DNA of 64,000 nt from Rhodopirellula sp. P2 (GTDB lineage: Bacteria; Planctomycetota; Planctomycetia; Pirellulales; Pirellulaceae), in contig NZ_CP118225.1 in assembly GCF_028768465.1 (NCBI RefSeq), positions 6,429,001 to 6,493,000 on the forward strand, given 5' to 3'. The position numbers and the translations under genes were made by a program. Below the pieces are notes generated by a model. The model saw nothing but the letters and a program-made list of their open reading frames with translations. It made no database searches and was not told the DNA's origin. Within the stretch, counting starts at the first letter, position 1; every line of letters begins with the position of its first letter. Shown piece after piece: positions 30,918 to 47,503 of this stretch.

Positions 30918-33900
30918 ATGGACTGGATCGCGGAAGACCAACTCGGATCGCTCGGATTGCTGATGGGCGAGGCGGTGGAGCGTCTCGTGGATTCACACGA
31001 CCAGGGTTTCGATTCCCGTGCAGCCATGCTGACGGTGAAGACTCCCACCCTGACGCAAGGCGACAACGGCGTTCGCTTTGATTTCCAGGTGGTCGGCAAC
31101 CGAGAAAAGCAACAAACCGTTGCTCTCGAGATCGTTCCCAAAATCGACGAGGACGATCCGGGCGGGGTCGGTGAATTGACCAGCGAGTGCCAATGCGGAT
31201 GCGTGGCGTTCCTGCGAGACCAATCGTGCCCGCACACGTTGGCTGCGGCCTGGTGGCTGCAAGAACAAATCGCTCGGCGAAGCGGCAACGGGCAGCTGAT
31301 CGAATTCCTGGGTGGCCTGAAAGCCGATGCGGTTGCGGCCGGCAAGCAGTTCGTCGATGAACTGTTGCGACGAGCCAAAAATTCGCGTCCCGCGCTGGCC
31401 GAAGACGCCGAGCCCACGCGATTGCAGTGGCGGGTGCGCGTCAACATGGCGTCCCAAACAGCCCCGCTGACGATCACGCCGTTCGAACAGAAACAACGCA
31501 AAGGTGGCAAGGGTTGGACCAAGGGCCGCGAGGTTCGCAGCTTCGACCTGCTCGATCAAAACCTGCTGACCGATCCGTTGGACAGCAAAATCGCCTCCTT
31601 GACGTCGGTGCCCACCCACGGCGTTCACGACGACAACTACGCCATCTTCGAAGCCCTGCGAATGCTGGCAGGCCACGAGAACGTCGCGTGGGACGATCAA
31701 AACGCGTTGCCCGTGGAAATCTTTTGCAGCCAACTGCTGTTGACGCTGCAGCCGGTCGAAGTCGAGAAATCCAACAAACCCAAAGCATCCAAGAGCCAAT
31801 CGGAAAGCGAACCGCCGACCAAGAAAACGCCTGCCAAAAAAGCCAAGAAGCGATCGGGCAAATCGGCCAACGAATTGCTGGACAACGTGACCACCACGCT
31901 GACCATGCCGGAATCCGAACCGGAACCTGTCCGCAGCGTTGCGCCCACGGACACCATGATGGTTGACGACCTGATCGCGGACGATGAAAAGGTCGAGGTT
32001 CAGTTCCAACCACGATTGTCGGTCGACGGCATCGACATCGATGTGCAGAAATGCGAAACCGTGGTCGGCGGATTGAGCCCGGTTGAACCGGCGATCATTT
32101 TGGCTGACGCGGAGGACGACCGCATCGTGCTGTGCACACTGGCCGACCCGGCCGCGATTGGAATCATTCAGTTCTTGCTTCGTGGTGATTACCGAGACAC
32201 GTTGCTGGATCACGCCACAGCGTCGCGATTGGCACTGGCCGCAGGTTCGATCGATTCGCTGATCCGAGTCGAATTGCCTCCGCAATTGGCTGGCCCCATC
32301 GTGCCGGCACCATGTGAGTTGGTGCTGCAAATGCGTCCGCGTCCCGGTGCGGGATTGAAGGTTTCGTTGCGGGTGCACGAGTCTCGACTGCGAGATTCGC
32401 TGGTCCCCGGGGACGCTCCCGAGTTGGTGCCGTGCTTGGCCGAAACCGGTCCGATCCGTTTGCAACGCGACTTGAAAGCCGAACTCGAAACCGCTGATAA
32501 AACGATCCAACGTTTTGGACTCAATCGGCTGTCTCACGAGAGCACGATGGAGTGGGTCGCCCTGACCGATCACGCCGCCTTGGATTTGCTGGGTCGTCTG
32601 CACGATGCCGGCGATGAAGCCCCGCGGATTGTTTGGCCCGAAGGCGAAACGTTCCGCGTGCGTGGCGAAATCACGCCGAAATCGTTGCGAATCAAAATCG
32701 ATGACTCGCCGGATTGGTTCGGCATGACCGGCACCGTGACCGTCGATGGCGTCGATGTGCCACTGCAGGATTTGCTGATGGCGGTCCGTGAAGATCGACA
32801 GCTCGTTCGAGTTGGCGACCGCCGATTCGCGAAAATCAGCGAAGCGTTCCGCAAACGACTGACCCAACTGGGCGACACCTTGGTCAGCGAGAAGGGACAA
32901 CTGCGTTTGGCGGGTGCCGCCGTGCCGTTGGCTCGCGATGTGTTGGGCGATGACGTGACGCTTGAAACCACCGCGACCTGGCACCAGGCAATTGAACGCC
33001 TTGATTCGCTTCAGGATTGGGCTCCTGATCGTCCGGAAGGCTTGGACGCCACGCTGCGGGACTACCAATTGGATGGTTACCGATGGTTGGCGCGCCTGAG
33101 CCGCTGGGGCGTCGGTGGCGTCCTGGCCGATGACATGGGTCTCGGTAAAACGGTCCAGACCCTGGGCATCTTGGTCGAACGTGGTCCCACCGGCCCCGCC
33201 TTGGTCGTGGCACCGACCAGTGTCGGTGAAAACTGGGTTCGGGAAGCCGAGAAGTTCACGCCCGCGTTGACCGGCAAACTGTACCGCGATTGCGACCGCG
33301 ACGAAGTCATCAAAACCTCGGGGCCCAACGACCTGTTGATCGTCAGTTATCAACTGCTGCAACGCGATGCGAAACGATTTGCTTCGCGTGCCTGGCACAC
33401 GTTGGTGCTCGACGAAGCTCAGTTCATCAAGAACTCACAGACAAAAACATCGCAAGCGATCCGAACGCTGCAAGCCGATTGGCGCCTGGGCCTGTCCGGC
33501 ACGCCGCTGGAAAATCACCTGGGCGAATTGTGGAGTCTGTTCCGGACACTGAGCCCCGGTTTGCTCGGTTCTTGGCAACGATTCCGCAGCCGTTTCGCGG
33601 AACCGATCGAGCGACACAACGATGCGGACCGCCGCGAATCACTGGCTCGCTTGGTACGTCCGTTTGTGCTGCGTCGAACCAAAGACAAGGTGCTGAAAGA
33701 ATTGCCACCACGCACCGAAATCACCCTTCGTGCGGAATTGTCGGTTCCCGAACGCAAGCTCTACGAAGACGCTCGCTTGGCTGCTCTGGCAGAACTCACC
33801 GCCGGCGGTGGTGCTCCATCGCACGAAGGGCGACGTCGCATTCAGACGCTGTCGTGGCTGACCCGACTGCGTCAGCTCGCCTGTCACCCAGCCCTGGTCG

Positions 33901-34439
33901 AACCCAGCTGGAAAGGCACCTCGTCGAAACTGCAACTGTTCTTGTCGCTGGTGGAAGAACTTCGCGAAGGCGATCACCGAGCACTCGTGTTCAGCCAATT
34001 CGTCAAACACCTCAGTGTCGTGCGAGCGGCTCTGGACGAACGCGGCATTTCCTATCAGTACCTCGACGGGGCCACGCCATCACACGAACGGCAACGCCGC
34101 GTTGACGCGTTCCAAAATGGCGAAGGCGATCTGTTCCTGATTTCGCTGAAAGCCGGTGGAACGGGGCTGAACCTGACCGCCGCGGATTACGTGTTGCACC
34201 TCGACCCGTGGTGGAACCCTGCGGTGGAAGACCAGGCGACTGACCGGGCTCACCGCATCGGACAGGAACGCGCGGTCACCGTGTATCGCTTGGTCGCCGA
34301 GCGAACGATCGAGGAGCAAATCCTTCAGCTCCACGCCGACAAACGCGAATTGGTGGCGGGCATTTTGGATGGCACCGATGCGGCTGCGAAATTGCAAACC
34401 CAGGATTTGATCGATCTGATCAAAGCCGAAATGAGCTGA
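30918..34439 (+). CDS. SWIM-domain SNF2-family helicase
   Basis: 1173 aa. A SWIM zinc motif (CQC...CPH; C91, C93, C104, H106) lies near the N-terminus, followed by a ~500-residue middle region with a Lys/Ser/Pro-rich linker at about 290-320. The SNF2 ATPase begins near 705: P-loop DDMGLGKT (about 738-745), motif II DEAQ (near 832), motif III SGTPLENHLGELW, a helicase C domain with LVFSQFVKHL, AGGTGLNLTAADYVLHLDPW and QATDRAHRIGQ. It is a dsDNA translocase that remodels protein-DNA complexes; bacterial homologues associate with RNA polymerase (RapA-like) or DNA repair, but here the partner is unknown. Monocistronic. Confidence 0.93.
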   Translation: MDWIAEDQLGSLGLLMGEAVERLVDSHDQGFDSRAAMLTVKTPTLTQGDNGVRFDFQVVGNREKQQTVALEIVPKIDEDDPGGVGELTSECQCGCVAFLRDQSCPHTLAAAWWLQEQIARRSGNGQLIEFLGGLKADAVAAGKQFVDELLRRAKNSRPALAEDAEPTRLQWRVRVNMASQTAPLTITPFEQKQRKGGKGWTKGREVRSFDLLDQNLLTDPLDSKIASLTSVPTHGVHDDNYAIFEALRMLAGHENVAWDDQNALPVEIFCSQLLLTLQPVEVEKSNKPKASKSQSESEPPTKKTPAKKAKKRSGKSANELLDNVTTTLTMPESEPEPVRSVAPTDTMMVDDLIADDEKVEVQFQPRLSVDGIDIDVQKCETVVGGLSPVEPAIILADAEDDRIVLCTLADPAAIGIIQFLLRGDYRDTLLDHATASRLALAAGSIDSLIRVELPPQLAGPIVPAPCELVLQMRPRPGAGLKVSLRVHESRLRDSLVPGDAPELVPCLAETGPIRLQRDLKAELETADKTIQRFGLNRLSHESTMEWVALTDHAALDLLGRLHDAGDEAPRIVWPEGETFRVRGEITPKSLRIKIDDSPDWFGMTGTVTVDGVDVPLQDLLMAVREDRQLVRVGDRRFAKISEAFRKRLTQLGDTLVSEKGQLRLAGAAVPLARDVLGDDVTLETTATWHQAIERLDSLQDWAPDRPEGLDATLRDYQLDGYRWLARLSRWGVGGVLADDMGLGKTVQTLGILVERGPTGPALVVAPTSVGENWVREAEKFTPALTGKLYRDCDRDEVIKTSGPNDLLIVSYQLLQRDAKRFASRAWHTLVLDEAQFIKNSQTKTSQAIRTLQADWRLGLSGTPLENHLGELWSLFRTLSPGLLGSWQRFRSRFAEPIERHNDADRRESLARLVRPFVLRRTKDKVLKELPPRTEITLRAELSVPERKLYEDARLAALAELTAGGGAPSHEGRRRIQTLSWLTRLRQLACHPALVEPSWKGTSSKLQLFLSLVEELREGDHRALVFSQFVKHLSVVRAALDERGISYQYLDGATPSHERQRRVDAFQNGEGDLFLISLKAGGTGLNLTAADYVLHLDPWWNPAVEDQATDRAHRIGQERAVTVYRLVAERTIEEQILQLHADKRELVAGILDGTDAAAKLQTQDLIDLIKAEMS

Positions 34440-34852: not shown

Positions 34853-35596
34853 TCAGCCGTTGGTCTTGGCTGGGATCAAATTCACAACCGTTTCGATGAC
34901 CTCGCCGATCGTCATGACGCGGGCGTACCGGTCCCGAAGCGTGGCCAGTGTCGCGTTGTGCAGCTCCGGCGTCACGGTCGCACAGCAATCTTCGACGAGG
35001 GTCACGAGGTATCCCAAATCACAGGCATCCCGGACGGTCGTTTCGACACACTCGTTGGTGTAGACACCGACCACAAACAGGGATTCGATGCCCATGTTCT
35101 TGAGCACGTAGTGCAGATTCGTGGAACTGAACACGCCACTGGCGGTTTTGTTGATGACGATCTCATCGCGATCGGGCAACGGTGCGACTTCCGTCAAGAA
35201 CTCGGCCTCACGCGAACCGGGGGCCGCCAGCAAATCCAAACGTTTGTGACCCTTGCCACGATCTCGTCCGTCTTGCGTGAGCGACTGAATGCGAGTGTGG
35301 ATGACCTCAAGGTTGCGGCGCCGAAACGCTTCTTGCAACCGTCGCACGTTGGGCAACACCGTTTCGCTCAGCCGATCGAAGTAATACTTCTGGCTCTCCA
35401 CCGAAACACCGTGGTTGTTTCCATCGGCAAAGACACCACACCCTGGAGCCGCGTCCAAATACTGCAAGTCGATGCACAGCAGCGCCGTGTTCCGCCCCAC
35501 CAGGAACTCACTGTGGGCTGGGTTGTCGACAAATGATTCGTGATAGATTTCGCGAAGCGGATCGGGGTGTTCGTCGTGCGGTGCAAATTCGTTCAT
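34853..35596 (-). CDS. Isochorismatase-family cysteine hydrolase
   Basis: 247 aa. The expected catalytic triad is present: Asp43 (CIDLQ), Lys150 (INKTASG) and Cys183 (TNECVETT, preceded by the usual GVYTNECV). This superfamily includes N-carbamoylsarcosine amidase, ureidoacrylate amidohydrolase and biuret hydrolase. The longer N-terminus (about 35 residues before the first strand) is like the carbamoyl/ureido hydrolase branch, but the substrate is not readable from the sequence. It is the last gene of the cluster, 18 bp after the N-carbamoyl amidohydrolase. Confidence 0.88.
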   Translation of the reverse strand: MNEFAPHDEHPDPLREIYHESFVDNPAHSEFLVGRNTALLCIDLQYLDAAPGCGVFADGNNHGVSVESQKYYFDRLSETVLPNVRRLQEAFRRRNLEVIHTRIQSLTQDGRDRGKGHKRLDLLAAPGSREAEFLTEVAPLPDRDEIVINKTASGVFSSTNLHYVLKNMGIESLFVVGVYTNECVETTVRDACDLGYLVTLVEDCCATVTPELHNATLATLRDRYARVMTIGEVIETVVNLIPAKTNG

Positions 35597-35614
35597 GGTG
35601 CGCTTTCAATGCGT

Positions 35615-36874
35615 TCAATCGGTGGTGCCGGATGACTCAGCAGCTGTCCCGGCCATTTCAGTGAGCGAATGGAGCAACACATTGGCTCCCGCCTCGATGT
35701 CTTGCCATGCGGTCCATTCCGCGGGCGAGTGACTTTGTCCGGACTTGCTGGGGACAAAGATCATCCCCACCGGAATCATTCTGCCCATGATCTGAGCATC
35801 ATGGGCAGCCCCACTGGGCATGATTTCGTAGTCGAGCTGCAGTTTCTCGGTCTGCTGCTGAATCGTTTTGACAATGGCTTCGCCGCATTGGACGGGGCTG
35901 ATCAGGCTCTTCTGCTCAAACTCGAACATCAGATTGCGTCGACGTGCGATCGCTGAGAGTGCCTTTCGAAACGCGTTGGCCAATTCCTCCAGCACGTCCA
36001 TCGAGGTGTCACGCACGTCCAAGGCAAACTCCACCAAGCCGGGGACGGTGTTGGTGGCCCCAGGAAGAATCTGAGCTTTCCCGATCGTTGCGCGACTTCG
36101 GTCGCTGCCGTTCTCTTCCAAAATTCGCGGGACCTCATGCGCGAAGTCCGCCAATCCCATGAACGCATCGTGCCGCATGTCCATCGGCGTCGTGCCGGCG
36201 TGGTTGGCTTCGCCTTTGAGCCGCACGGACCAGGTGAACAGACCCGTGATTTGGTCGACGACTCCCACCGATTTCTGCAGTCGATCGAGCACCGGCCCCT
36301 GTTCGATGTGCATTTCCAAGTAGCAATGCAGGGCCTCTGGATCTCTCGCCGCATCCAGTGCCGCAACGGGATCGTAACCATGGCGAGCCATTTCATCCTG
36401 CAACAGGATGCCATCCATGTCGGTCATCGTCGCGATCATTTCTGGGTTGATTTGCCCGCAGACGGACTGCGATCCAAACATCCCACCAAAGCGACCTTCC
36501 TCGTCGCTGAACGCAATCAGTTCGATCGTGCGTTCGGGCTGGACACCGGATTCCTTCAGACAACGCAGGCATTCCAATCCTGCGACCACGCCCAGCGTCC
36601 CATCCAACGCCCCGGCGCAGGGCACGGTGTCGATGTGCGACCCCACCAAGACTCGCGGCAAATCCGTCTTCCCGACGAGGGTCGCCGAAACATTCGCGGC
36701 CCCATCCATCGAGCTTGGCAATCCCGCGGCCTGGATCCGATCGATGAGCCAACGTTTGCCCTCGATGTCCGCGTCCGTGAACGCCATCCGATAGATGCCG
36801 TGGTCGTCTGAATTGCGGCCGATCTGCGAGAGTTCCAAGATATCGGCTTTGATCCGCTCCAGATTCACTTGCAT
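35615..36874 (-). CDS. M20-family N-carbamoyl/ureido amidohydrolase
   Basis: 419 aa from ATG 36874. Hallmarks of the allantoate amidohydrolase / N-carbamoyl-L-amino acid hydrolase (beta-ureidopropionase) group: metal ligands H80 (GSHIDT) and D91 (ALDGTLG), E125-E126 (FSDEEGRFGG), HIEQGPVL, the substrate-binding NHAGTTPM, and the C-terminal SGAAHDAQ and FVPSKSGQSHSP. It hydrolyses a carbamoyl or ureido group to ammonia, CO2 and an amine. It begins 5 bp after the asparagine-synthase stop, so the genes are co-translated. Confidence 0.92.
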   Translation of the reverse strand: MQVNLERIKADILELSQIGRNSDDHGIYRMAFTDADIEGKRWLIDRIQAAGLPSSMDGAANVSATLVGKTDLPRVLVGSHIDTVPCAGALDGTLGVVAGLECLRCLKESGVQPERTIELIAFSDEEGRFGGMFGSQSVCGQINPEMIATMTDMDGILLQDEMARHGYDPVAALDAARDPEALHCYLEMHIEQGPVLDRLQKSVGVVDQITGLFTWSVRLKGEANHAGTTPMDMRHDAFMGLADFAHEVPRILEENGSDRSRATIGKAQILPGATNTVPGLVEFALDVRDTSMDVLEELANAFRKALSAIARRRNLMFEFEQKSLISPVQCGEAIVKTIQQQTEKLQLDYEIMPSGAAHDAQIMGRMIPVGMIFVPSKSGQSHSPAEWTAWQDIEAGANVLLHSLTEMAGTAAESSGTTD

Positions 36875-36879
36875 GGCGA

Positions 36880-38799
36880 TCAATCCACTGCCGGCAAAGG
36901 CAGCCCCTCGATGTATTGGCCTTGAAGCATGTGCAACTGCAACACGTGATTCATCACGATGTCGTTGCGACGCGCGATCGTGCCATCACTTTCTTTCCAG
37001 GCATCATCGATGAACTGCATCAACTTGCCATGATCAAAGAAACCCAACGAGCCGACACGCGAGGGCGTCAACCAGTGATCAATCATCTCTTGCACGGCGG
37101 CCCGTTTGACCGGATCGGTGTGAGCTGGCGGTGCCATGAAAGCAAACTTCTTGCGTTCGTACAGTTCCCGCGGCAACACATTGACCATCGCCTCGCGAAG
37201 CACCCATTTTTCGACCCCATTGCGGATGCGAATGTTGGGGGGAATCGTGGTGGCGTACTCCGCGACGTGGTGATCAAGGAATGCCGGACGGGCCTCCATG
37301 CTGTTGGCCATGTCCATCCGGTCACCGCCCCAAGTCAGAATCTGGCCCTCCAGCATCGTCTTGCTCCACGTGTACTGAGACACGTCCAAACGATGGCGAC
37401 CGCGAACCTGAGCCGGATCGATCGCACGGGCGACTTCGCCGACCGGGTCGTACTCCCTCAACAGATCCGTGAGCGACGACGAGAGGATCGGCTCGAATCG
37501 CTTCAGCACCAACATCCAGGGCTGAATCCACGACGGCGTGAACCCGCACAGGTCTTGCCAAGCACTGTGCTGCAGGTCTTCCTCGGCCAAGATGGCTCCG
37601 GCGAAGATGCCGCCTTCGTCATCGCGTCCCAGCCAATCGCGTTTGAAAAACGGGTAGCCGCCGAACAGTTCGTCGCTGCCTTCGCCGGTGATCACGGCTT
37701 TGTAATTGCAAGCCCGAACGCGGCGACTCATGTGCCATTTCGCGACCGCCAACGTGTTGTAGAAAGTCCGCTCGGCATGCCAAGTGGCTCGCTCAAACGC
37801 CGGCCCGTAAAGTTCTTTTTCGGTGAGTCGCAGCAACTCCTGTTCAGCACCAGTGCTTTCAGCCATCCGCTTGGCGATGTTCGATTCGTCGTATTCGTCA
37901 TTGTCGAAGGCAATCGTGAACGCTTTGACAGGCGACTGTTGCAGCGTGTTGGCCAGCCCCAAAATGGAGCAACTGTCGATCCCGCCGGACAAGTAACAGC
38001 CGACGGGGACGTCCGCTTCCAAGCGAGTCGCAACGGCGTCGATCAAGCGATCCTGGACACCTTGGATGAACGGTTCCGGATCGGCGTTCTCATCATGTGA
38101 CTCGGGAAATTCGAAATCCCACCAGCGCTTCGTTTGGACTTCCAGGGAATCACCGTTTCGCTGGATCACCAACATGTGTCCCGGGAGCAACGCATCGACG
38201 CCTTCGAAGGCAGTCGATCCCGGCACCATGACCTGCATCATTTGGTGAACGGCAGCCTTGGGACACAACCGAGGCTCGATGTCAGGATGCTGCAGGATCG
38301 ATTTGACCTCGGATCCCCAAACGATGCCGTTGTCATTGACCGCGTAATACAGCGGCTTGACGCCAAAGCGATCGCGAATCAGAACCAAACGTTCTTTGCG
38401 ATCGTCGTAGAGCACCACGGCAAATTCGCCGCGAAGATGATCGACCATGGCGAGATCATGCTTCAGATACAGCGGCAGCGTGATCGCACTGTCGCTTTTT
38501 CCGTTGCACTTGTATTTCTCACAAGCCAGCGATGTTCGAATCCGTTTGTAATCGTACAACTCGCCATTGACCGTGACCGCGTAGTCACCATCGTCGGTTT
38601 CAATCGGCTGATGACCGTGAGCCAACCCAATGATCGACAATCGGGTGTGCCCCATCGCCAGCCCCCGTTCCTGAAACAGACGGCTGCCGCGTTCGTCGGG
38701 ACCGCGGTGGTCCAGAACGTCGAGCATAGGGTCGAGCGCAAAACGCAATTCACGTTCGTTGGTACGAGATGGATTCCAAAATCCGGTGATGCCACACAT
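36880..38799 (-). CDS. asnB: Glutamine-dependent asparagine synthase-type amidotransferase
   Basis: 639 aa beginning MCGITGFWNPSRTNER, with Cys2 as the N-terminal glutaminase nucleophile. The glutaminase domain (1-210) is followed by a synthetase domain with the PP-loop SGGIDS (about 270-275) and EGSDELFGGYPFFKRD. Length is near that of long AsnB proteins. The classical product is asparagine from aspartate, Gln and ATP, but in this cluster, with a carbamoyltransferase and N-carbamoyl hydrolase, it may amidate another acid. It lies 58 bp after the carbamoyltransferase gene. The gene symbol denotes the family only. Confidence 0.88.
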   Translation of the reverse strand: MCGITGFWNPSRTNERELRFALDPMLDVLDHRGPDERGSRLFQERGLAMGHTRLSIIGLAHGHQPIETDDGDYAVTVNGELYDYKRIRTSLACEKYKCNGKSDSAITLPLYLKHDLAMVDHLRGEFAVVLYDDRKERLVLIRDRFGVKPLYYAVNDNGIVWGSEVKSILQHPDIEPRLCPKAAVHQMMQVMVPGSTAFEGVDALLPGHMLVIQRNGDSLEVQTKRWWDFEFPESHDENADPEPFIQGVQDRLIDAVATRLEADVPVGCYLSGGIDSCSILGLANTLQQSPVKAFTIAFDNDEYDESNIAKRMAESTGAEQELLRLTEKELYGPAFERATWHAERTFYNTLAVAKWHMSRRVRACNYKAVITGEGSDELFGGYPFFKRDWLGRDDEGGIFAGAILAEEDLQHSAWQDLCGFTPSWIQPWMLVLKRFEPILSSSLTDLLREYDPVGEVARAIDPAQVRGRHRLDVSQYTWSKTMLEGQILTWGGDRMDMANSMEARPAFLDHHVAEYATTIPPNIRIRNGVEKWVLREAMVNVLPRELYERKKFAFMAPPAHTDPVKRAAVQEMIDHWLTPSRVGSLGFFDHGKLMQFIDDAWKESDGTIARRNDIVMNHVLQLHMLQGQYIEGLPLPAVD

Positions 38800-38857
38800 A
38801 AAGGGTGTTGGTGATTCGTAGAGACGGATGAAGAGAAAGAGGCGAACGACCGCGACT

Positions 38858-39940
38858 TCAGATCCCGCTGATCCGGTCGGTTCGATCCAAGATGGCTGCC
38901 AGCAAAGCTTGCCGAATGAAGACCGCGCCAGCCGCTTGAGCGAAGTACAGATTGTGTTCGGTCTCGTCCAAGTCCTCGCTCAACTCAGCGTTGCGAGCGA
39001 GGGGATGCATGATCACGGCGCCGGGTTTGAACGGACTACTCGCATCGAGGCTGTATCGCGAATCAAGATTGCGATAGCTGTCACCCAAAAACGCGATCGA
39101 GTTCACATAAACGACATCCAATTCGGGCAAGACCTCCTGGACATCGTTGGTGATCTCAATCGGAATGGGGGACTGCTCAATCGGTTCCGTCAAATCCAAA
39201 CCGACCGGGTCGGCCATCTCGCTGATCAACGTGATCTTGCTGACCGCGCCCGCGAACATCAGCGACAATCGTAAGAAGCTCTTCACCGCTCGCATCGATC
39301 CCGGCGTGCCGATGATCCCCAGGTGCACTCGTTTTTCCGGTGGGCAATGTTCCGAATGCAATTCGGGTCGCCACTTCAGCAACGCATACCAATCGATCAA
39401 CGCTTGAGTGGGGTGATGTCCAGAACCGTTGCCCGCGTTGATCAACGGCCGCTTCAGATTCTTGCGAATCTCGTCCAGGCTGTCCGTGTCCGGGTGACGC
39501 ATGATGACCACGTCGCCGTAGGTGTTGAACATCTCCCCGATGTCCGCCAGGGATTCCCCCTTGGCAATGCCGGTGACCTGACCATCGGGCACCGACAGCA
39601 CCTTTCCATCCAGCCGCTGCACCGCGCTTTCGAACGACAACCGGGTGCGGGTGCTGGGCTCAAAGAACGCCGTGATGGCGATCTTGCCGTCCAGCGGTTT
39701 GTCCATCTCAACGTTGCGGGACTCCAAGAGAGCCGCCAACTGAGCGATCGCCAAAATCGTGCGTCGATCAAACTGACGCGGGTTCAGAATCGATTGCCCA
39801 GCGAGCGACTTGAGTGTCTCGCGGTCAATGACCCCGTCGAACGCGTCCAGCAACGACAGCGGCGACAACTTCTGTCCCTTGGAGTTGGTCGCCGTTGCGC
39901 TCAACGCTTCGGACACTTGTTGATTTGAAAGTGAATTCAT
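38858..39940 (-). CDS. Aspartate carbamoyltransferase-like enzyme
   Basis: 360 aa, about 50 longer than PyrB, with the extra length at the N-terminus. Carbamoyl-phosphate-binding motif FFEPSTRTRLSFESA (near 92-106), mobile-loop Lys in GIAKGESLADIGEMF, then VIMRHPDTDS, HPTQALIDW and HPLARNAELSEDLD (PyrB has HPLPR). These support carbamoyl transfer from carbamoyl phosphate to an amino group. A housekeeping PyrB would normally sit with other pyr genes; here it sits with a symporter, an amidotransferase and N-carbamoyl hydrolases, so I suspect a specialised paralogue (compare YgeW in purine catabolic clusters). Confidence 0.8.
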   Translation of the reverse strand: MNSLSNQQVSEALSATATNSKGQKLSPLSLLDAFDGVIDRETLKSLAGQSILNPRQFDRRTILAIAQLAALLESRNVEMDKPLDGKIAITAFFEPSTRTRLSFESAVQRLDGKVLSVPDGQVTGIAKGESLADIGEMFNTYGDVVIMRHPDTDSLDEIRKNLKRPLINAGNGSGHHPTQALIDWYALLKWRPELHSEHCPPEKRVHLGIIGTPGSMRAVKSFLRLSLMFAGAVSKITLISEMADPVGLDLTEPIEQSPIPIEITNDVQEVLPELDVVYVNSIAFLGDSYRNLDSRYSLDASSPFKPGAVIMHPLARNAELSEDLDETEHNLYFAQAAGAVFIRQALLAAILDRTDRISGI

Positions 39941-39944
39941 TGGA

Positions 39945-40064
39945 TTACCAGATTTGCTTGTCTCGCAGGTCGATCCACAAAAATCCGATCAGCACCGCGA
40001 CCCCGATGACACAAAGCACCAGACTGCCAATCACTAGAAATTGAAAGAAGAAAACCGAAAACAT
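39945..40064 (-). CDS. 39-residue membrane protein downstream of the symporter
   Basis: MFSVFFFQFLVIGSLVLCVI continues into GVAVLIGFLWIDLRDKQIW: a single long hydrophobic helix followed by a charged tail. It starts 4 bp after the symporter stop and ends 4 bp before the carbamoyltransferase ATG, so it fits exactly in the cluster. Short accessory helices are known for some SSS-type transporters; a subunit of the symporter is a reasonable guess. No known domain. Confidence 0.65.
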   Translation of the reverse strand: MFSVFFFQFLVIGSLVLCVIGVAVLIGFLWIDLRDKQIW

Positions 40065-40068
40065 CAGC

Positions 40069-41517
40069 TCAGTCCTCTGCCAGAGTATCGAATTCAAAGT
40101 TGTCTGGCCAAAGGAAGCAGCAGACTGCAAAGGTGATGCCTGAAACCGCCGCCCCAATCAACGATGCCGTGAACCAACCGATCATGAAATACGCCACCAA
40201 CCCCAATGCACTCCCCAAGACCATCGAGGCACACGCCGCCACGGGACTGGCCGAACGGAAATACAACCCACACAACACGGGCCAAATGCAACTGCCAACC
40301 AGCGGCCCAGCAAAGAACAGCACCGTCGCGAGCGACCCCACGTTGGGATACGCGGCCACCCAGGCGATCGCCCCCAACCCAATGATAGCGATGGCGGACC
40401 ACCTCCGTTTGGAAGGATCGGATGCCTGTTTGCTCGTGACACGTCGTTGAATGGGTTCGGCGATGTCATTGACGATCAAATCCGATGTCGCTGCCAACAA
40501 ACTGTCGATGCTAGAGGCCAACGAGCAAAAGACGACAACAAAAACGAGCAAGGCACCGCCGGTTCCCAGCAGGGTTGCCGCGACCAACGGTCCCGCAGTG
40601 TCCGGCTCGCTGATTCCAATCCCCAGTGCTGGCGCCGCGAGGCCCAGGAACCCTGCCACGATGGGCACGGGCAACCAGAGCACGCCGCCCAACGCATAGG
40701 CTTTTGGACCGACACCTTCCCGCATCGCAAACGCCCGACTCCACCACACATTGCTGTGGAAAATTTCACCCAATCCAAACAACAGATTATTGAAAAGTGC
40801 CATCAACGCCGCGGGAAAGAACGCAGACAACAGCATCGGACGCTCGTTGCTGAGCTTTTCATGCACCTCTTGGATTTCAACCTGGGTCAGGACAGCAACG
40901 GCCACCACGACCAATCCCGCCAGGATGATCAGACTCTGAATGAAGTCGGTTCCGATCACCGCGTACATGCCACCGAACAACGTGTACGCCACGCACACCA
41001 GCACGACAACTGACATCCCAACCTCGTAGGGAATGCCTGACAGCACATTGAGAAGTTTCCCCCCCGCCATCGACATGGAAACCAACCAAGTCACCGCATA
41101 GAACAGCGAGATGATCAAGAACGGGACCGTGCCCAACCACCCGTAGCGACGACGCATGAATTCGACGGCCGTGTACCCCTTGGGCATCAATTTTCGGATG
41201 CGGCCGCTCATCGGAGCGAAAGCGAACAACCCAAAGCTCGCGGTGGAATACGCCAACATCCCCCAAATCCCAAGCTGCAATGCGTACTGGGGCGCCAGCA
41301 TCGTCGTGTTGGAAGTGATCCAGGTCGCCACCGCCGTCGCGGTTCCCATCGCCAGGCCCACGTTGCGACCGGCCACCGCGAAACCATCGTACGATTTGGC
41401 TTGCCGCCCCCACCACCAACCCAGGACAATCCACAACACCCCGAACATTGCCAGCAGGATGTATCCCGCTTCGGCACTCAGAATCGCTCCGCTTGCTGCC
41501 AACATCACGCTGTTCAT
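40069..41517 (-). CDS. Sodium:solute symporter (SSS, DUR3-like)
   Basis: 482 aa, ATG 41517 (MNSVMLAASGAILSAEAGYI), with about 13 predicted membrane segments. Motifs fit SSS transporters: WWWGRQAKSYDGFAVAGRNV at the first helix boundary, ATWITSNTTMLAP (sodium-site region), GYTAVEFMRRRYG, and GGMYAVIGTDFIQSLIIL. The general pattern is similar to DUR3-type urea/ureide transporters, although substrate cannot be assigned. Its start overlaps the preceding gene's stop by ATGA and it is followed 4 bp later by a tiny membrane protein, in a cluster for ureido-compound metabolism. Confidence 0.88.
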   Translation of the reverse strand: MNSVMLAASGAILSAEAGYILLAMFGVLWIVLGWWWGRQAKSYDGFAVAGRNVGLAMGTATAVATWITSNTTMLAPQYALQLGIWGMLAYSTASFGLFAFAPMSGRIRKLMPKGYTAVEFMRRRYGWLGTVPFLIISLFYAVTWLVSMSMAGGKLLNVLSGIPYEVGMSVVVLVCVAYTLFGGMYAVIGTDFIQSLIILAGLVVVAVAVLTQVEIQEVHEKLSNERPMLLSAFFPAALMALFNNLLFGLGEIFHSNVWWSRAFAMREGVGPKAYALGGVLWLPVPIVAGFLGLAAPALGIGISEPDTAGPLVAATLLGTGGALLVFVVVFCSLASSIDSLLAATSDLIVNDIAEPIQRRVTSKQASDPSKRRWSAIAIIGLGAIAWVAAYPNVGSLATVLFFAGPLVGSCIWPVLCGLYFRSASPVAACASMVLGSALGLVAYFMIGWFTASLIGAAVSGITFAVCCFLWPDNFEFDTLAED

Positions 41518-42111
41518 GCTCGGGTTCCTTGCACGATCACCACGACCACGGCCAAGAACACAAGAGCGCCGATGACGAGCAGCACCAGCGCCTGCCAAAC
41601 CGGCCAGTGCAGAACCTGCACCGTTGCAGGCATGTCTGAGCGTGCAAGCAATTCGCCTTCTGCATTCAACGCCTCAACGTGATAGCGATACGTTCCATCG
41701 GGCAATCCCGAGACAAATGCGATCGGCAGTGTCCCCTCATAGACGACACGCTGAGCGGGATTCGCGGTCACAACCAGCGGCTCCAGCGTTTCCGCCCCCT
41801 GACCATCCAGTGAACCGGAACGGACCGTTCCGTCGTCGCCCGAATCCAACTCATAGACTCGAAAGGAGTCCAGCGATTCGCTGGCATTCGTTACATCCCA
41901 AGTCAGTTGGAAGTAACCTTCGCGAGCAATCAAAGGCTTTTCAAGAAGGCTTGGTTGAAATGCGACCGAGATGGTGGAATCAAAACCATCCGACGGTTCT
42001 TGCCCGGCAACAGGCAAGGCCTGAACCAGAAAAATCCACCCGGTGACCGACAGAAAAGCGGTGAAAAACAGGCGAAAAAACGAACTGCCTCCAGGGCAAC
42101 AGATAATTCAT
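41514..42111 (-). CDS. Secreted/TM-anchored protein with an apparent frameshift at an A6 run
   Basis: The ATG at 42111 opens MNYLLPWRQFV, but in this frame the sequence soon becomes non-protein-like. Removing one base from the A6 run at 42075-42080 (T6 on the coding strand) fuses it to FRLFFTAFLSVTGWIFLVQ ALPVAGQEP, a textbook signal peptide, followed by an Ig-like beta domain and a C-terminal helix (WPVWQALVLLVIGALVFLA), about 198 aa total. Without the shift the second frame has no ATG and only a TTG at 42017. The stop overlaps the symporter start (ATGA). It is either a sequencing/assembly error, a recent mutation, or transcriptional/ribosomal slippage on the homopolymer. Confidence 0.65.
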
Positions 42112-42325: not shown

Positions 42326-42883
42326 TCAGGGCGACTGAAACATGCTGGCTTCCCAGATGAAGTTCCCATTTTTCAAACGCACTCTCGGTGGAATCACCGC
42401 CAACACCTCTGCACCACCAACCGTGTCACCTTCGGAGACAAACTGCGTTTCTTCGCCGAAACGAATGATCGCACGTGTTTTTCCAACGTCCGCGAATCCG
42501 AGCACGATGTATTCGGATGCCTTGGTCGGCTTCACGACCGTCGACGGTGCCGATTGGTCAATGTGAAAGGGGTCCTTGCGATCCGGGAAGGGAGGCACAA
42601 ACCGAATCGTTTGGGCCCCCGAACTAGCCTTCAAGCCCTGATCGCGAATCCCCAGATCCGCTTTCGTTTCCTGGTCTTGCATCGCGACCCGCCGAATCGT
42701 GTCGATCGATTCGGGATCGACTCCGCAGCCCGGCAGCACCACGATTTTCACGAACAGCAACACAAACGCGATCGCCCATTTGAAACGAGTCGAACGCGAC
42801 CGGGCCGACTGCGTCGACATGGTTTTCTTGTTGGGTGCACTTTCTTGGGAGGTCACCTCCCGTGCCAAACGTTGCTCCGCCAT
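42326..42883 (-). CDS. pilP: PilP-like pilus assembly protein
   Basis: 185 aa; start ATG 42883 shares one base with the secretin stop (TGATG). After a charged N-terminus comes one membrane helix ([20 protein letters not shown]). If this is a lipobox (LPGC), the protein is a lipoprotein like PilP. The C-terminal part, [20 protein letters not shown], followed by LKNGNFIWE, resembles the PilP/GspC HR domain, which binds the secretin N-terminus. It lies after the secretin gene; in Proteobacteria pilP precedes pilQ. Confidence 0.65.
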
Positions 42884-45198
42884 CACGGTTGCTCCATCGG
42901 ATGAATGTGCACCGGGGGGTACATCGATGGTGTTCCGAGCACATGGACGGCCGAGTCACCGGCTCGCAGCGGTTCATTGACAGTCGATTCTTCCAACATC
43001 ATTCCATTGGAATGAAACAAAACCGAATCGGAGGGCACGGCATTGGAAGTCGCAGCTCCCGGTGGCACCGAATCGAATTCGTACAGGGGCATCATTTGCC
43101 CGGGTACAACAGGACCGGGATTCATCAAACCGGGATAGGCGAACTCCATCGGTGCAATGCCTTCACCACCCAACATCTGAAGTTCGCTTGTGCCACCATT
43201 CAGACGAACTCGGGGATGGTGGTTGGGACAATTCAAATCGTGGCATTCGGGAGACTGCGGGCATACCGAGGCGTACGGGATCGAGTCCAACTGACGGGTG
43301 GCGACGCACTGGGCTTGTCGTGACCGTTGGTTCCCATGGTCGTAAGGCGAGATGATTTCGGGTTTCAGAAAGACGATCAGTTCGCTCTCACGCACCTGGG
43401 TGTCGTGGCTGCGGAACAGTTTGCCGATGTATTTGAGATCCCGCAGGTACGGCACGCCGCTGACATCTTCGATGATTCGTTTTTGTCGCAAACCACCCAG
43501 CGTGAACATGTGCCCGTTGGCGACCCGCACGGTGGTCTCGGCGGTGCGACTGTCGATCACCGGGTTGTTTTCAATTTCGCCCACTTTCACGCTGTACTCG
43601 GGCTGAACCTGCAATTCGATCGTGTTGTCGTTGCTGATCCGCGGCGTCACCTTGAGGATGATCCCGGCGTCTTTGAATTCGACTTGTGCAAAAACGACAT
43701 TGCTTCCTTCGGCAGGCTGAGCGGCGACAATCGGGATCTGCTGAACAATTTTGATCGACGCTTCCCGGCGATCAATGGCGGTGATCGATGGATCGGCCAA
43801 CAGCTTGGCTTCATCGCTGCTGTCCAAGGCGCTGAGCAGGAAACTGGTGTCAAAGTTGTCCGTCAAGGTTCGAATGCCCATCGTGGTGGCACCACCGGAA
43901 CCAAGCGTCCCAAATGTCACCGCTTGCTCCACGTTGCCAGCAAAATCGGCGAGCGCGGATTCATCGGTGGTGTTCAACCGAAAACCGCGGCCCCAATTGA
44001 CCCCCAACTTTTCGAGTTCTTCTAAACTGACGTCGTAGATCAACGCTGTGATTCGAACCTGAGCACGCGGCACATCCAGTTGCTTGAAGGCTTGCGATGC
44101 CAAGTCCAACTGCGCGCGATTGCCTTTGATCATGATGCGGTTCTCCGCTTCATAAACGGCCACAATCGTGCCTTCCCCAAGTGCCTCCTGAAGTGACTCA
44201 CGCATCTCCGAGGCTTCCGTGAACTGAGGCGTCAAGTAGATCAGTTCCGTCGCCAGCGTGTCATAGACACTTGGAGCACCTGATCCTTGGCGTCCCGCGG
44301 ATGCCCCGCCGCCCAAGGATTCGCCCCCGGTTCTGCTGGGTTGCATCGCCGCGTCAGGTGACATTGCGGTCAACATCTCCTGGACCCGATTGATGTTGGT
44401 CTTGGTGTCGACGATCAGCATCGCCCCTCGTCCAACCGCTTGGATTCGACCGCGATCGGACAACAACAACTGCGCCGCTGAGATCGTGGCGTTCATCTCG
44501 TTCTCATCCGCCGTTTGAAAACGCAACGTTCGCGACTCAAACTCCGGACTTCCCGTGCCCACTTCATCCAGTGGCAACACAACCAAACTGTTTCCCGCGG
44601 CGATGTAACCGTAACCGGACGATGTCAAAATCGCGGACAGCACGTCCCGCAGGGGAGCGTCTTTGAAGACTCCCGAGACATCGCCGGTCACCTTCTCACC
44701 CGCAACGATGTTGATGTTCCAGAGATCAGAGAGCAGGAAAACCACTTCTTGCAGTGACGTTTTGCGAAATGTGATGCTGCCTCGCTGCATCAGAACTTCA
44801 TCAATTGCCAGGGGTGGCCCGGTCAACGAAACGGCACTTCGGGTCGCGAGGGTTGAGGGCGTCTCGGCAAAGACAGCGGACTCCACGCTGGATTTGGTGC
44901 CCGCAGAATCGCTGGGGGAAGCGGCCGCCAAGGCTGGTCCTGCCACCCTGTCGGCTGCCGTCGCGGCGTTGTTATCTACGTTGGCAACAACCTTCGTCTC
45001 AGCCGCGGTCAACGACGAACCGCTCCATGTCATCCCGAGCATCGTCAATGACACGCCCATGCCCAGCGAGGCAGATTGAATCAATCCGGCAAGCACGCGT
45101 CGAGTTCTCACACGACGCGAGGTCATCGGACTCGCGAGCGAAACGCTCGGAGTTGAAATGACAGGTTCAGCTGGTGACGCGGAGCCTTCCTTGGCCAT
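42883..45198 (-). CDS. pilQ: Type II/IV secretin (PilQ/GspD-like) with a Cys/His-rich C-terminal extension
   Basis: 771 aa from ATG 45198. A basic N-terminus and signal (residues 25-60) precede an N0/STN-like domain ([20 protein letters not shown]), N1/N3 modules, and the secretin domain: [20 protein letters not shown], then [45 protein letters not shown] and [14 protein letters not shown]. This forms the outer-membrane channel. After the beta-barrel domain, a tail of about 130 residues contains [16 protein letters not shown] near 645-660, a cluster that could bind metal and is not usual in secretins. Pro/Gly-rich end. Upstream neighbours are PilO and PilMN. Confidence 0.88.
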
Positions 45199-45246
45199 GC
45201 GTTGATTCCTAATGGTGAAAATGGTGTGAGGCGACATGGCGTCGTC

Positions 45247-45894
45247 TCACTTCAGTCGCATCCTTGTGCGTGTTGCGACCAGATCGTCTTCTTCGAGCTC
45301 GGAACGCTGCAGGCCATACAACGAGATCCGCAGTTCCAAACCAATCCATTTGTCGTTTGATCCTGCAGGCTCCAACGCCAAACTCTCGACCGTCATCAAC
45401 CACCGCTGCCGGTTGATCTTTTCCATCACTTCCATGACCGCCTCCAACGAGCCATCCGCGACCAAAGTCAACGAGTGCGAATGCAACTCAAAGTCGGATT
45501 CCATGTCCATCTCTGGCAGCCGTCGATTGTGCGGGTTGTCTCCTCGACTGGCCCATCGACGCCGCTGCCCATCGTCAATTTCCAAACTCCTCAACGTCGC
45601 GTTGCCCTGCCGAACGATGCCGATCACGGTGTCGCGAACCTGTTGAATTCTGTCTGGCGTGGTGGAACGCTCCAACAATTGCTGGCGTTCATCCGCCAGA
45701 GTCCTTTCGATTCGTTGCAACCGCACATCACGCGATTGCAGCGTGTCAAATTCTTCTTCCAGCTTTGACAATTCACGTTGACCAGCACGCAGCTCCCTGT
45801 ACTCATCGACCAGTGGCTTTCCGATCACTATCAATGCAAGGAAACTTCCAGCCGCGACGATCCCCCGGATTAGCCGGTCATTCGGTTTATTCAT
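45247..45894 (-). CDS. pilO: PilO-like pilus assembly protein
   Basis: 215 aa. A short N-terminal cytoplasmic part, one membrane helix (GIVAAGSFLALIVIGK), a coiled-coil segment (ELRAGQRELSKLEEEFDTL), and a periplasmic alpha/beta domain (HSHSLTLVADGSLEAVMEV, then MTVESLALEPAG). This is the PilO/GspM layout: it dimerises with PilN in the inner membrane. The start overlaps the upstream PilMN reading frame by 8 bp, so translation is coupled. The assignment relies on topology and position, because the family diverges strongly. Confidence 0.7.
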   Translation of the reverse strand: MNKPNDRLIRGIVAAGSFLALIVIGKPLVDEYRELRAGQRELSKLEEEFDTLQSRDVRLQRIERTLADERQQLLERSTTPDRIQQVRDTVIGIVRQGNATLRSLEIDDGQRRRWASRGDNPHNRRLPEMDMESDFELHSHSLTLVADGSLEAVMEVMEKINRQRWLMTVESLALEPAGSNDKWIGLELRISLYGLQRSELEEDDLVATRTRMRLK

Positions 45895-47503
45895 GGGATG
45901 CCCCCTGACCGAGATCCATGGCGGAACGATCGGGGCGAATCCCCAATCGAATCTGAAAAATCAAACCGTCGTCGTCCGCGCTGGCATTCGTTCCCAGCAA
46001 AGCGACTTGGTCGATTTCAGGCACACGACGGACGTAGCTGATCACGTCGTAAATATCGTTTTCTTGGGCCGTCCATCCTTCCAAGTGAATTTGCCGATCG
46101 GAATCCAACACCATCGATCGCAAGCGGGTTTGAGCGGGCAAGCACTGGGCCATTTGCGTGACCAGCTGATTGACATGTGGCGAGAACGTTTTGGATTCAA
46201 TCGTTTGCAAATGCGTGACGATTTCTCGCATCTCATGCACGCCAGCCATTCGGACTTGGGTTTGCCGCATTTGCGTTTCGACGAACTCTCGTTTTTGCTG
46301 CTGACGATCGGCGCGGGACCGTTCGTTGGCCACCATCGCAAACCCGAACAGCAACAAGACCGCAGCCGCCGCGACGGGCCAATACGTCCCCGTCATTCGT
46401 CGCACAAACGATTTGCCACGATCACGCCTGATCTCCTGCAACAAATCAGGTTTGGGCATCTCGTGGTTGGTGATCAACGGCAACACCGCGGCCATCACAG
46501 CGACCGTGTCACTCGTCGCCAACGGAACATCACAAGCGATCACGTCACTGTCGTCATCGGAAACGTTCTTGTACCGGTCAATCTTCCAAGCCGCCGAACT
46601 CAAATCAATGGCGGACACGGAGAGCTTGGAGTTGTTCGCGAAGTGCCGGACAACAGGGTCCACTTTGTCGACGCCACCCCCGACGAACAGCTGATCCAGC
46701 TGATGGTCAGACATCCCGCGATGACGCTGACAAAATCGCTGCAAACGTTCGAGGTGATGATCGATCACATCCGCGAACTCATTGCCATCTCGTGCCGCTG
46801 CCGGACGGTAGTCCAACAACAATCGTCCCTCGAATGAAATCCCCACTTCCCACGACTGACCAAACGAATCGGCAATCAACACGGGCGCATGGCGGTCCAA
46901 TCCCAACCAACCTGTCAGCCGGGCCAAGCTGACCAACGAAGGTTCCAACCAAGCGATCTCGACATCGCACATTCGAAACACTTCGTACAAGTTTTTCAGT
47001 CGCACTCGATTGCCCACGGCCGTCAGTGCGTGCTCCATGCCCGGACCGATTGTTTCGCGCGTGTGCCCCGTGACTTTGCCGCCCGGTCCCAATTGCAAGT
47101 AGCGCGGAATGCGCCCCGCCAAGGCAGACAAATCGCGGTCGACATCTTCCACCGCCCCCACCGAAATTCGCGTGACGCAGAAGTCCCCGCTGAGCGAGAT
47201 CGCAACCGGATCATCACCAATTTGATGGCGCTGTTTCAAAGTCGTCAGCGCTTCGACCATCTCCGTCCACCGCCCACTGTTGATCCATCCGCTGGAATCG
47301 GAACAGCGGATTTGATCGACGATCATTTCGTCGGCGGGTTCGTTCAGTTGGAGCGCCTCGGCCGAGTGACTGGCGATGCACAACATCAATCGATCGTCTT
47401 CAATTCGCAACGCCACACGCCGATCACTCGACGGTCCGTTCGCCGAGCGTCCCAAGGGCCACCGCCAAACGCGTTCGTTCTTTTTGGTTGCAGAGCGATT
47501 CAT
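45887..47503 (-). CDS. PilM-PilN fusion (GspL-like)
   Basis: 538 aa. The N-terminal ~330 residues have features of the PilM actin-like fold (APVLIADSFGQSWEVGISF, with GRLLLDYRPAA as phosphate-binding-like strands). A single membrane helix (WPVAAAAVLLLFGFAMVAN) at about 375-393 is followed by a coiled coil and the PilN periplasmic domain (SMVLDSDRQIHLEGWTAQ, then YDVISYVRRVPEIDQVALLG). In Proteobacteria PilM and PilN are separate, while GspL fuses them. It is the first gene of the assembly operon, and the platform ATPase and major pilins are not in the window. Confidence 0.78.
   Translation of the reverse strand: MNRSATKKNERVWRWPLGRSANGPSSDRRVALRIEDDRLMLCIASHSAEALQLNEPADEMIVDQIRCSDSSGWINSGRWTEMVEALTTLKQRHQIGDDPVAISLSGDFCVTRISVGAVEDVDRDLSALAGRIPRYLQLGPGGKVTGHTRETIGPGMEHALTAVGNRVRLKNLYEVFRMCDVEIAWLEPSLVSLARLTGWLGLDRHAPVLIADSFGQSWEVGISFEGRLLLDYRPAAARDGNEFADVIDHHLERLQRFCQRHRGMSDHQLDQLFVGGGVDKVDPVVRHFANNSKLSVSAIDLSSAAWKIDRYKNVSDDDSDVIACDVPLATSDTVAVMAAVLPLITNHEMPKPDLLQEIRRDRGKSFVRRMTGTYWPVAAAAVLLLFGFAMVANERSRADRQQQKREFVETQMRQTQVRMAGVHEMREIVTHLQTIESKTFSPHVNQLVTQMAQCLPAQTRLRSMVLDSDRQIHLEGWTAQENDIYDVISYVRRVPEIDQVALLGTNASADDDGLIFQIRLGIRPDRSAMDLGQGASHE

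What the first reader, a model, noticed from the sequence alone, without database searches (positions are those of the whole stretch)
34853..42111. Seven-gene cluster for an unrecognised ureido/carbamoyl pathway
Tight spacing and overlaps join a DUR3-like symporter, a 39-residue membrane protein, an ATCase-like carbamoyltransferase, an AsnB-type amidotransferase, an N-carbamoyl amidohydrolase, and an isochorismatase-fold hydrolase. Both carbamoyl-forming and carbamoyl-hydrolysing enzymes occur together. No canonical purine or pyrimidine pathway uses this combination. Either ureide catabolism feeding carbamoyl phosphate, or synthesis of an amidated carbamoyl compound, would be new.
Basis: partly seen in the sequence, partly recalled or inferred. 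Interest (0 to 1): 0.75.

Follow-up and report, generated by a model that had tools for sequence, protein, structure and literature searches.

The report
Gene cluster for a carbamoyl-amide osmolyte
A marine bacterium carries a widely conserved set of genes that looks built to make, import and recycle a small uncharged salt-protection molecule, probably N-carbamoyl-glutamine amide, a solute known since 1991 for which I know of no genes.

Summary
The cluster is real. On the minus strand, 34853-42109, lie a beta-sandwich membrane protein, a DUR3-like symporter, a 39-aa membrane microprotein, an ATCase-fold carbamoyltransferase, an AsnB-type amidotransferase, an N-carbamoyl amidohydrolase and an isochorismatase-fold amidase. 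Symporter, carbamoyltransferase and AsnB keep order and strand in 76 of 80 loci, mostly from four phyla; contig ends cut the other four. The microprotein sits between the first two in 79 of 79. The carbamoyltransferase is not an ATCase: 77 of 77 keep the carbamoyl-phosphate site but lack R229 and Q231, which hold aspartate's side chain. The genome has its own ATCase, OTC and AsnB. The two hydrolases mirror the two synthetic steps and are dispensable. Betaine-synthesis genes lie beside 7 of 80 clusters, MarR genes near 20 of 80.
Best reading: synthesis, uptake and recycling of an uncharged N-carbamoyl amino-acid amide used as compatible solute; [quoted passage not shown] Not shown: acceptor, product, salt induction.

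The parts
41514..42109 (-). Beta-sandwich (FN3-like) protein, probably exported, with one C-terminal transmembrane helix; start unresolved (first canonical start TTG 42017); overlaps the symporter start
   Evidence: homologues in 55 of 80 loci by clustering; model pLDDT 82 with beta strands and helix 140-166; weak FN3/Ig-type fold matches
40069..41517 (-). Sodium/solute symporter (SSS family), closest solved relatives DUR3 urea symporters
   Evidence: SSF; DUR3 E 2e-25
39945..40064 (-). 39-aa single-helix membrane microprotein ending D......[IL]W
   Evidence: found between symporter and carbamoyltransferase in 79 of 79 loci; one good copy in this genome; no Pfam match under E 0.1 and no NCBIfam match
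38858..39940 (-). Carbamoyltransferase of ATCase fold, own clade; carbamoyl-phosphate site intact, aspartate side-chain site lost
36880..38799 (-). AsnB-type glutamine-dependent amidotransferase (ATP), proposed to amidate the carboxyl of the N-carbamoyl amino acid
   Evidence: 29% identical to the separate AsnB of the same genome
35615..36883 (-). M20-family N-carbamoyl-L-amino-acid / allantoate type amidohydrolase (proposed recycling step: removes the carbamoyl group)
   Evidence: NF006771 564 bits over cut-off 399; closest solved 3n5f; metal ligands 47 of 47
34853..35596 (-). Isochorismatase-fold amidase (proposed recycling step: hydrolyses the carboxamide)
   Evidence: D43, K150, C183 in at least 97% of a 40-row alignment

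Best explanation
The cluster makes, imports and recycles an uncharged N-carbamoyl amino-acid carboxamide that serves as a compatible solute. Step 1: the carbamoyltransferase transfers carbamoyl from carbamoyl phosphate to the alpha-amino group of an amino acid with a neutral side chain, masking its positive charge. Step 2: the AsnB-type enzyme uses ATP and glutamine to turn the alpha-carboxylate into a carboxamide, masking the negative charge, as AsnO does in N-acetylglutaminylglutamine amide synthesis. The DUR3-like symporter, with the 39-aa microprotein and the beta-sandwich membrane protein as probable partners, imports the same ureido/amide solute or retrieves what leaks. When salt falls, or nitrogen is needed, the isochorismatase-fold amidase removes the amide and the M20 enzyme removes the carbamoyl group. 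[quoted passage not shown] Shown: gene identities, conservation, active-site pattern, neighbourhood. Inferred: substrates, product, direction, osmotic role.
For: Conserved core: 76 of 80 full symporter-carbamoyltransferase-AsnB triads, 4 cut by contig ends; microprotein 79 of 79. The 77 carbamoyltransferases keep S52, T53, R54, T55, K84, R105, H134 and R167 (E. coli numbering) in 77 of 77, but have R229->S in 76 (A in 1), Q231->A in 76 (T in 1) and P268->A in 77, while the genome's own ATCase keeps R229 and Q231; they lie on one side of a branch with support 100/99. Separate ATCase, OTC, AsnB. Hydrolases mirror the two synthetic steps and are optional (36 both, 3 M20 only, 12 neither, of 51). 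M20 keeps N278 (43 of 47) and R291 (45 of 47), which I recall as carboxylate-binding in L-carbamoylases; that fits amide removal before decarbamoylation. Neighbourhood: glycine/sarcosine and sarcosine/dimethylglycine methyltransferases plus a betaine-type BCCT transporter beside the cluster in 7 of 80 loci (L078, L084, L088, L090, L094; divergent in L089, L152), a decayed remnant in L087, and in L074, one of the 12 regions taken by handle. MarR genes near 20 of 80 loci; of 10 opened places among the 31 plasmid relatives of the L078 MarR, 7 lie beside ect or ect/proVWX genes and 2 beside a BCCT gene, 1 beside neither. CGA described as an uncharged osmolyte in PMC1224877 (passages). NAGGN operon: AsnB-type amidotransferase with divergent MarR repressor (PMC8070244, passages).
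Against: R. baltica solute pools in print were glutamate, sucrose, trehalose and mannosylglucosylglycerate; the text has no 'carbamoyl', 'unknown' or 'unidentified' (PMC3694870, passages and section 13), although G327, whose 7,145,576-base contig I take by recalled length to be R. baltica SH1, carries the cluster. No Ectothiorhodospira genome could be searched, and none of the 80 loci is labelled gammaproteobacterial (two short patterns, best 80 of 92). Chitinophaga and two Sphingobacterium carriers are not obvious halophiles (habitats recalled). No relative of those MarR genes lies in the window, and the genome lacks the betaine synthesis gene. The best plasmid hit of the MarRs from two loci without betaine genes (L154, L119) lies beside no osmolyte gene that I tested for. 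No substrate was tested; the AsnB-like protein scores over the generic asparagine-synthase cut-off.
Confidence: 0.58

Rival explanations
1. N-carbamoyl-asparagine pathway: AsnB makes asparagine from aspartate and the altered carbamoyltransferase carbamoylates asparagine. The product, a singly charged N-carbamoyl amino acid, serves as osmolyte or nitrogen store.
For: Loss of R229 and Q231 from an ATCase frame would suit asparagine in place of aspartate. The AsnB-like protein scores over the asparagine-synthase cut-off.
Against: The genome already has a separate AsnB; the cluster AsnB is only 29% identical to it and has its own family motif ERTFYNTLxVAK. The product would keep a charge, and I know of no such osmolyte.
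Confidence: 0.14
2. Ureide scavenging: the symporter imports dissolved ureides or N-carbamoyl amino acids, the two hydrolases release ammonia, the carbamoyltransferase runs backwards to carbamoyl phosphate, and AsnB stores nitrogen.
For: DUR3-like symporter, an allantoate/N-carbamoyl amidohydrolase and an amidase in one operon.
Against: The hydrolases are missing near 12 of 51 clusters, while AsnB is there beside the carbamoyltransferase wherever the contig reaches; no carbamate kinase over cut-off in the genome; some neighbours are betaine genes and relatives of EctR-type regulators.
Confidence: 0.12
3. Nitrogen reserve rather than osmolyte: the same N-carbamoyl amide is made under nitrogen excess and broken down by the two hydrolases.
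For: CGA would carry four nitrogens; recycling genes beside 36 of 51 clusters; presence in Chitinophaga and Sphingobacterium; no carbamoyl solute in the published R. baltica osmolyte pool.
Against: Betaine-gene and EctR-related neighbours in part of the loci point to osmotic control; recycling genes are dispensable.
Confidence: 0.13

Closest known systems
N-acetylglutaminylglutamine amide (NAGGN) operon, asnO-ngg (PA3459-PA3461)
   Same: AsnB-type amidotransferase that amidates the glutamine end of the molecule; an uncharged amino-acid osmolyte; a MarR regulator beside the genes (PMC8070244, passages)
   Different: Amino group masked by acetylation plus a peptide bond (Ngg), not by a carbamoyltransferase; no symporter among the three operon genes named there; the cluster AsnB scores far below the NAGGN amidotransferase cut-off (258 against 570.1 bits)
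Aspartate carbamoyltransferase (PyrB)
   Same: Fold and carbamoyl-phosphate site
   Different: R229 and Q231 lost in 77 of 77; a separate clade; below every ATCase cut-off listed; a separate ATCase exists
Ectoine clusters with EctR/CosR and SSS-type EctI importers
   Same: MarR-type regulator and SSS importer beside osmolyte synthesis genes (PMC13342039, abstract and passages)
   Different: Different enzymes and product; the symporter here is DUR3-like with a conserved microprotein; a MarR gene near only 20 of 80 loci
DUR3 urea symporters
   Same: Closest solved relatives of the symporter
   Different: Tied by gene order to a 39-aa microprotein, a beta-sandwich membrane protein and carbamoyl-amide synthesis genes; substrate unknown

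Membership tests
Aspartate carbamoyltransferase | Carbamoyl-phosphate site (STRT, K84, R105, H134) | tested here: met
   77 of 77
Aspartate carbamoyltransferase | Aspartate-binding R229 and Q231 (roles recalled) | tested here: not met
   R229 is S in 76 and A in 1 of 77; Q231 is A in 76 and T in 1 of 77
Aspartate carbamoyltransferase | Score over the curated ATCase cut-off | tested here: not met
   170.7 against 263 and 169.5 against 236.95 bits; the Reichenbachiella homologue is also below
Ornithine, putrescine or YgeW carbamoyltransferase | Score over the curated cut-off | tested here: not met
AsnB-type amidotransferase | N-terminal Cys, glutaminase residues, SGGxD loop, synthetase Lys | tested here: met
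   Cys1 67 of 69, N74 and D98 69 of 69, G235, G236 and D238 69 of 69, K449 69 of 69
NAGGN amidotransferase (TIGR03104) | Score over cut-off 570.1 | tested here: not met
   258 bits
L-N-carbamoylase / allantoate amidohydrolase (M20) | Metal ligands H83, D94, E129, H192, H385 (roles recalled) | tested here: met
   47 of 47 each; subfamily NF006771 564 over 399 bits
Isochorismatase-fold cysteine amidase | Asp-Lys-Cys triad (triad recalled) | tested here: met
   D43, K150, C183 in at least 97% of 40 rows
[quoted passage not shown]
   needs enzymes or NMR/MS of extracts
CGA biosynthesis | Gene pair present in CGA-accumulating Ectothiorhodospira | not tested
   no Ectothiorhodospira genome could be reached
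EctR/CosR regulators (MarR genes near some clusters) | Closest relatives lie beside ect, pro or betaine genes | tested here: inconclusive
   L078 MarR: 10 of 31 plasmid hits opened; 7 beside ect or ect/proVWX, 2 beside BCCT, 1 beside neither. That one (Vibrio sp. THAF190c) is the best hit of the L154 and L119 MarRs. The other MarRs of the 20 loci were not tested

The most novel reading that the evidence does not exclude
[quoted passage not shown] Its importer is a three-part DUR3-like symporter with an obligatory 39-aa microprotein subunit.
Probability: 0.35. Interest if true: 0.85.

Novelty: new variant of a known kind. Interest (0 to 1): 0.7.

Why it matters
If true, it gives genes to an osmolyte that I know without any, adds a carbamoyltransferase specificity, and provides a marker for a kind of salt adaptation in several bacterial phyla. 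It also predicts a nitrogen-rich dissolved ureido-amide that marine bacteria make and exchange, and a symporter subunit of 39 residues that standard family libraries do not hold.

Tried and rejected
Housekeeping ATCase or OTC: rejected, separate copies exist and the acceptor-site residues are lost. Housekeeping AsnB: a separate, better-scoring copy exists. Allantoin or pyrimidine degradation: the isochorismatase-fold protein scores far below the RutB and biuret hydrolase cut-offs (54.7 against 377.95; 75.4 against 370 bits). Papers on the cluster: R. baltica + salt + transcript + asparagine synthesis (0 papers); carbamoyltransferase + asparagine synthesis + compatible solute + symporter (1 paper, unrelated by its title and abstract start); carbamoyl-glutamine or -asparagine names; Ectothiorhodospira + carbamoyl + compatible solute + glutamine. 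No gene assignment in what I saw: passages of PMC1224877 and PMC7824335; listings only of PMC3857566, PMC5231179, PMC4320484, PMC11979133, PMC8068844 and PMC11665356. Plasmid search with the carbamoyltransferase: 45 records, all below 60% identity, the 40 listed at 28.6-36.6%.

Changed on re-check: opening the unannotated plasmid hits showed one MarR relative beside no osmolyte gene tested, the best hit of the L154 and L119 MarRs; I lowered the best explanation from 0.60 to 0.58 and the regulator membership to inconclusive.

Limits of the counts: the 80 loci come from one scan with two peptide patterns (178 stretches, 92 confirmed, best 80 kept) and include close relatives; being found by the carbamoyltransferase, they say nothing about clusters without it. 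Alignments used complete ORFs only (76 carbamoyltransferases, 68 AsnB, 46 M20, 39 isochorismatase), plus the window's own protein. M20 and isochorismatase were called present at 45% identity or more, so the 33% M20 hits of L098 and L101 and the weak ones of L104 and L111 do not count as present, though 33% rows remain in the M20 alignment (lowest identity 31%). Absent means absent from the fetched stretch, not from the genome.
Full report
Observation. From upstream to downstream: a beta-sandwich membrane protein (41514 to about 42109, start unresolved), a symporter (40069-41517), a 39-aa membrane protein (39945-40064), a carbamoyltransferase (38858-39940), an AsnB-type amidotransferase (36880-38799), an M20 N-carbamoyl amidohydrolase (35615-36883) and an isochorismatase-fold protein (34853-35596). 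Pfam agrees for the four enzymes and the transporter. The symporter's closest solved relatives are DUR3 urea symporters. In the tree the nearest row is Rhodopirellula europaea (carbamoyltransferase 95% identical).

Conservation. In the own family 42 of 199 genomes, the own one included, carry an orthologue. In a 199-genome sample of the phylum the own genome and one other do; the remaining 57 matches are at 38% identity or less, the level of ordinary ATCases. Of 12 regions taken by handle, 11 are from the own family and keep the order from the beta-sandwich protein to AsnB; L069 lacks M20 and isochorismatase, L065 and L073 show no isochorismatase, L067 is cut by its contig end. The twelfth (L063, another family) has symporter, carbamoyltransferase and AsnB in order and the two hydrolases on the other strand. 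One scan of named genomes gave 80 loci in Planctomycetota, Verrucomicrobiota, Bacteroidota and Myxococcota, plus a MAG labelled Deltaproteobacteria and an unassigned one that is the same contig as L063. In 76 of 80 the symporter, carbamoyltransferase and AsnB follow each other on one strand, in two of these (L104, L111) with a large gene before AsnB; in the other 4 a contig end cuts the set. The beta-sandwich protein clusters together from 55 loci; its model has beta strands and one helix at 140-166, with only weak fibronectin/immunoglobulin-type matches.

The carbamoyltransferase is not an ATCase. Against E. coli PyrB, 77 of 77 sequences (76 from loci, plus the window) keep S52, T53, R54, T55, K84, R105, H134 and R167; S80 is G in 77; R229 is S in 76 and A in 1; Q231 is A in 76 and T in 1; P268 is A in 77. 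The genome's own ATCase keeps R229 and Q231. From recalled ATCase structure, R229 and Q231 hold the aspartate side-chain carboxylate and R167 the alpha-carboxylate, so the acceptor should be an amino acid with a free alpha-carboxylate and an uncharged side chain. The 77 lie on one side of a branch (100/99) from 27 ATCase-like sequences of the phylum, E. coli PyrB, and the genome's own ATCase and OTC; those last two have very long branches, so their own placement is unsure. The model (pLDDT 86) matches ATCases best, but its acceptor loop at 283-287 has pLDDT under 50, so no pocket is claimed from it. All scores fall below the curated cut-offs.

The AsnB-type enzyme keeps its catalytic residues (Cys1 in 67 of 69; the two exceptions were not examined) and has a conserved family motif ERTFYNTLxVAK in place of the E. 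coli sequence. It is 29% identical to the separate AsnB of the genome.

Hydrolases. Of 51 loci with at least 4.5 kb on both sides, 36 have both M20 and isochorismatase, 3 M20 only, 12 neither. They lie downstream, upstream or on the other strand. I read synthesis as the core and hydrolysis as an accessory. M20 metal ligands are kept in 47 of 47, N278 in 43 and R291 in 45; its closest solved relative is an N-carbamoyl-L-amino-acid hydrolase.

Osmotic context. Beside the cluster in L078 lie a glycine/sarcosine N-methyltransferase (496 bits, cut-off 350), a sarcosine/dimethylglycine methyltransferase (396 bits, below its cut-off of 550, but closest to the solved protein 2o57) and a BCCT transporter closest to the betaine family (512 bits, below the cut-off of 650). 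The same three genes lie beside the cluster in 7 of 80 loci, divergently in the two Phycisphaerales loci L089 (BCCT cut by the contig end) and L152, with a decayed remnant in L087, and also in L074. MarR genes lie near 20 of 80 loci in four phyla and the unassigned one, from 0.5 to 5.7 kb away; 65 loci have more than 2.5 kb upstream of the symporter. I opened 10 of 31 plasmid hits of the L078 MarR: in 7 annotated ones the gene lies beside ectABC (6) or ect and proVWX (1); of 3 unannotated ones, 2 have a BCCT gene beside it and 1 (Vibrio sp. THAF190c) no ect, BCCT or methyltransferase match, only ABC-ATPase-like ones. Since the L078 MarR also neighbours betaine genes, I repeated the search with MarRs from L154 and L119, where no betaine genes were found: they hit largely the same plasmid genes at 26-39% identity in the rows shown, but their best hit is THAF190c. 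So the regulator argument is good for the loci with betaine genes and open for the rest. PMC13342039 (abstract and passages) describes EctR/CosR regulators and SSS importers beside ectoine genes. No relative of these MarRs lies in the window and its genome has no betaine-synthesis gene.

Interpretation. A carbamoyl group masks the amino charge and a carboxamide masks the acid charge. [quoted passage not shown] The second is made with an AsnB-type enzyme under a divergent MarR repressor (PMC8070244, passages). The present cluster has the enzyme types needed for the first, plus a hydrolase for each bond made and a transporter of the urea-symporter kind. PMC7824335 (passages) mentions the solute; I saw no genes given. 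I therefore propose CGA as product; glutamine as acceptor is inference.

Results against. Published R. baltica solute pools contain glutamate, sucrose, trehalose and mannosylglucosylglycerate, and the text has no 'carbamoyl', 'unknown' or 'unidentified' (PMC3694870, passages and section 13). R. baltica SH1 carries the cluster if G327 is that strain, which I infer from its contig length alone. Carriers such as Chitinophaga japonensis and Sphingobacterium are not marine as I recall. The key test in Ectothiorhodospira could not be run.

Noticed in passing
window 41514-42111: The seventh gene has no ATG or GTG start in frame; L064 and R. europaea (L080) have an in-frame ATG that the window lacks. 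An ATG in another frame at 42111 is followed by a T-rich run. The start codon is unresolved.
   Followed up: partly
L104 9692-12604; L111 9705-12602: In two Bacteroidota a large gene (970 aa in L104) with no Pfam match (L104 tested) and a weak resemblance to the M20 hydrolase sits between the carbamoyltransferase and AsnB genes.
   Followed up: partly
L087 5200-6020: Decayed remnants of both betaine methyltransferases and the BCCT transporter lie between the MarR gene and the cluster, as if the betaine genes were lost and this cluster kept.
   Followed up: no
L140, L150 (carbamoyltransferase), L091 (symporter), L100 (AsnB): Genes match in two adjacent pieces in these public assemblies, which suggests frameshifts or stops, real or from sequencing.
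   Followed up: no
window 30918-34439; L106 782-2182; L116 1-1218: An SNF2-type helicase lies next to the cluster in the window and a relative (46-48% identical) lies near it in two Verrucomicrobiota loci; possibly chance.
   Followed up: no
window 42883-45237 and 45887-47503: A secretin gene and a further gene upstream keep their place beside the cluster in L064, L070 and L080.
   Followed up: no
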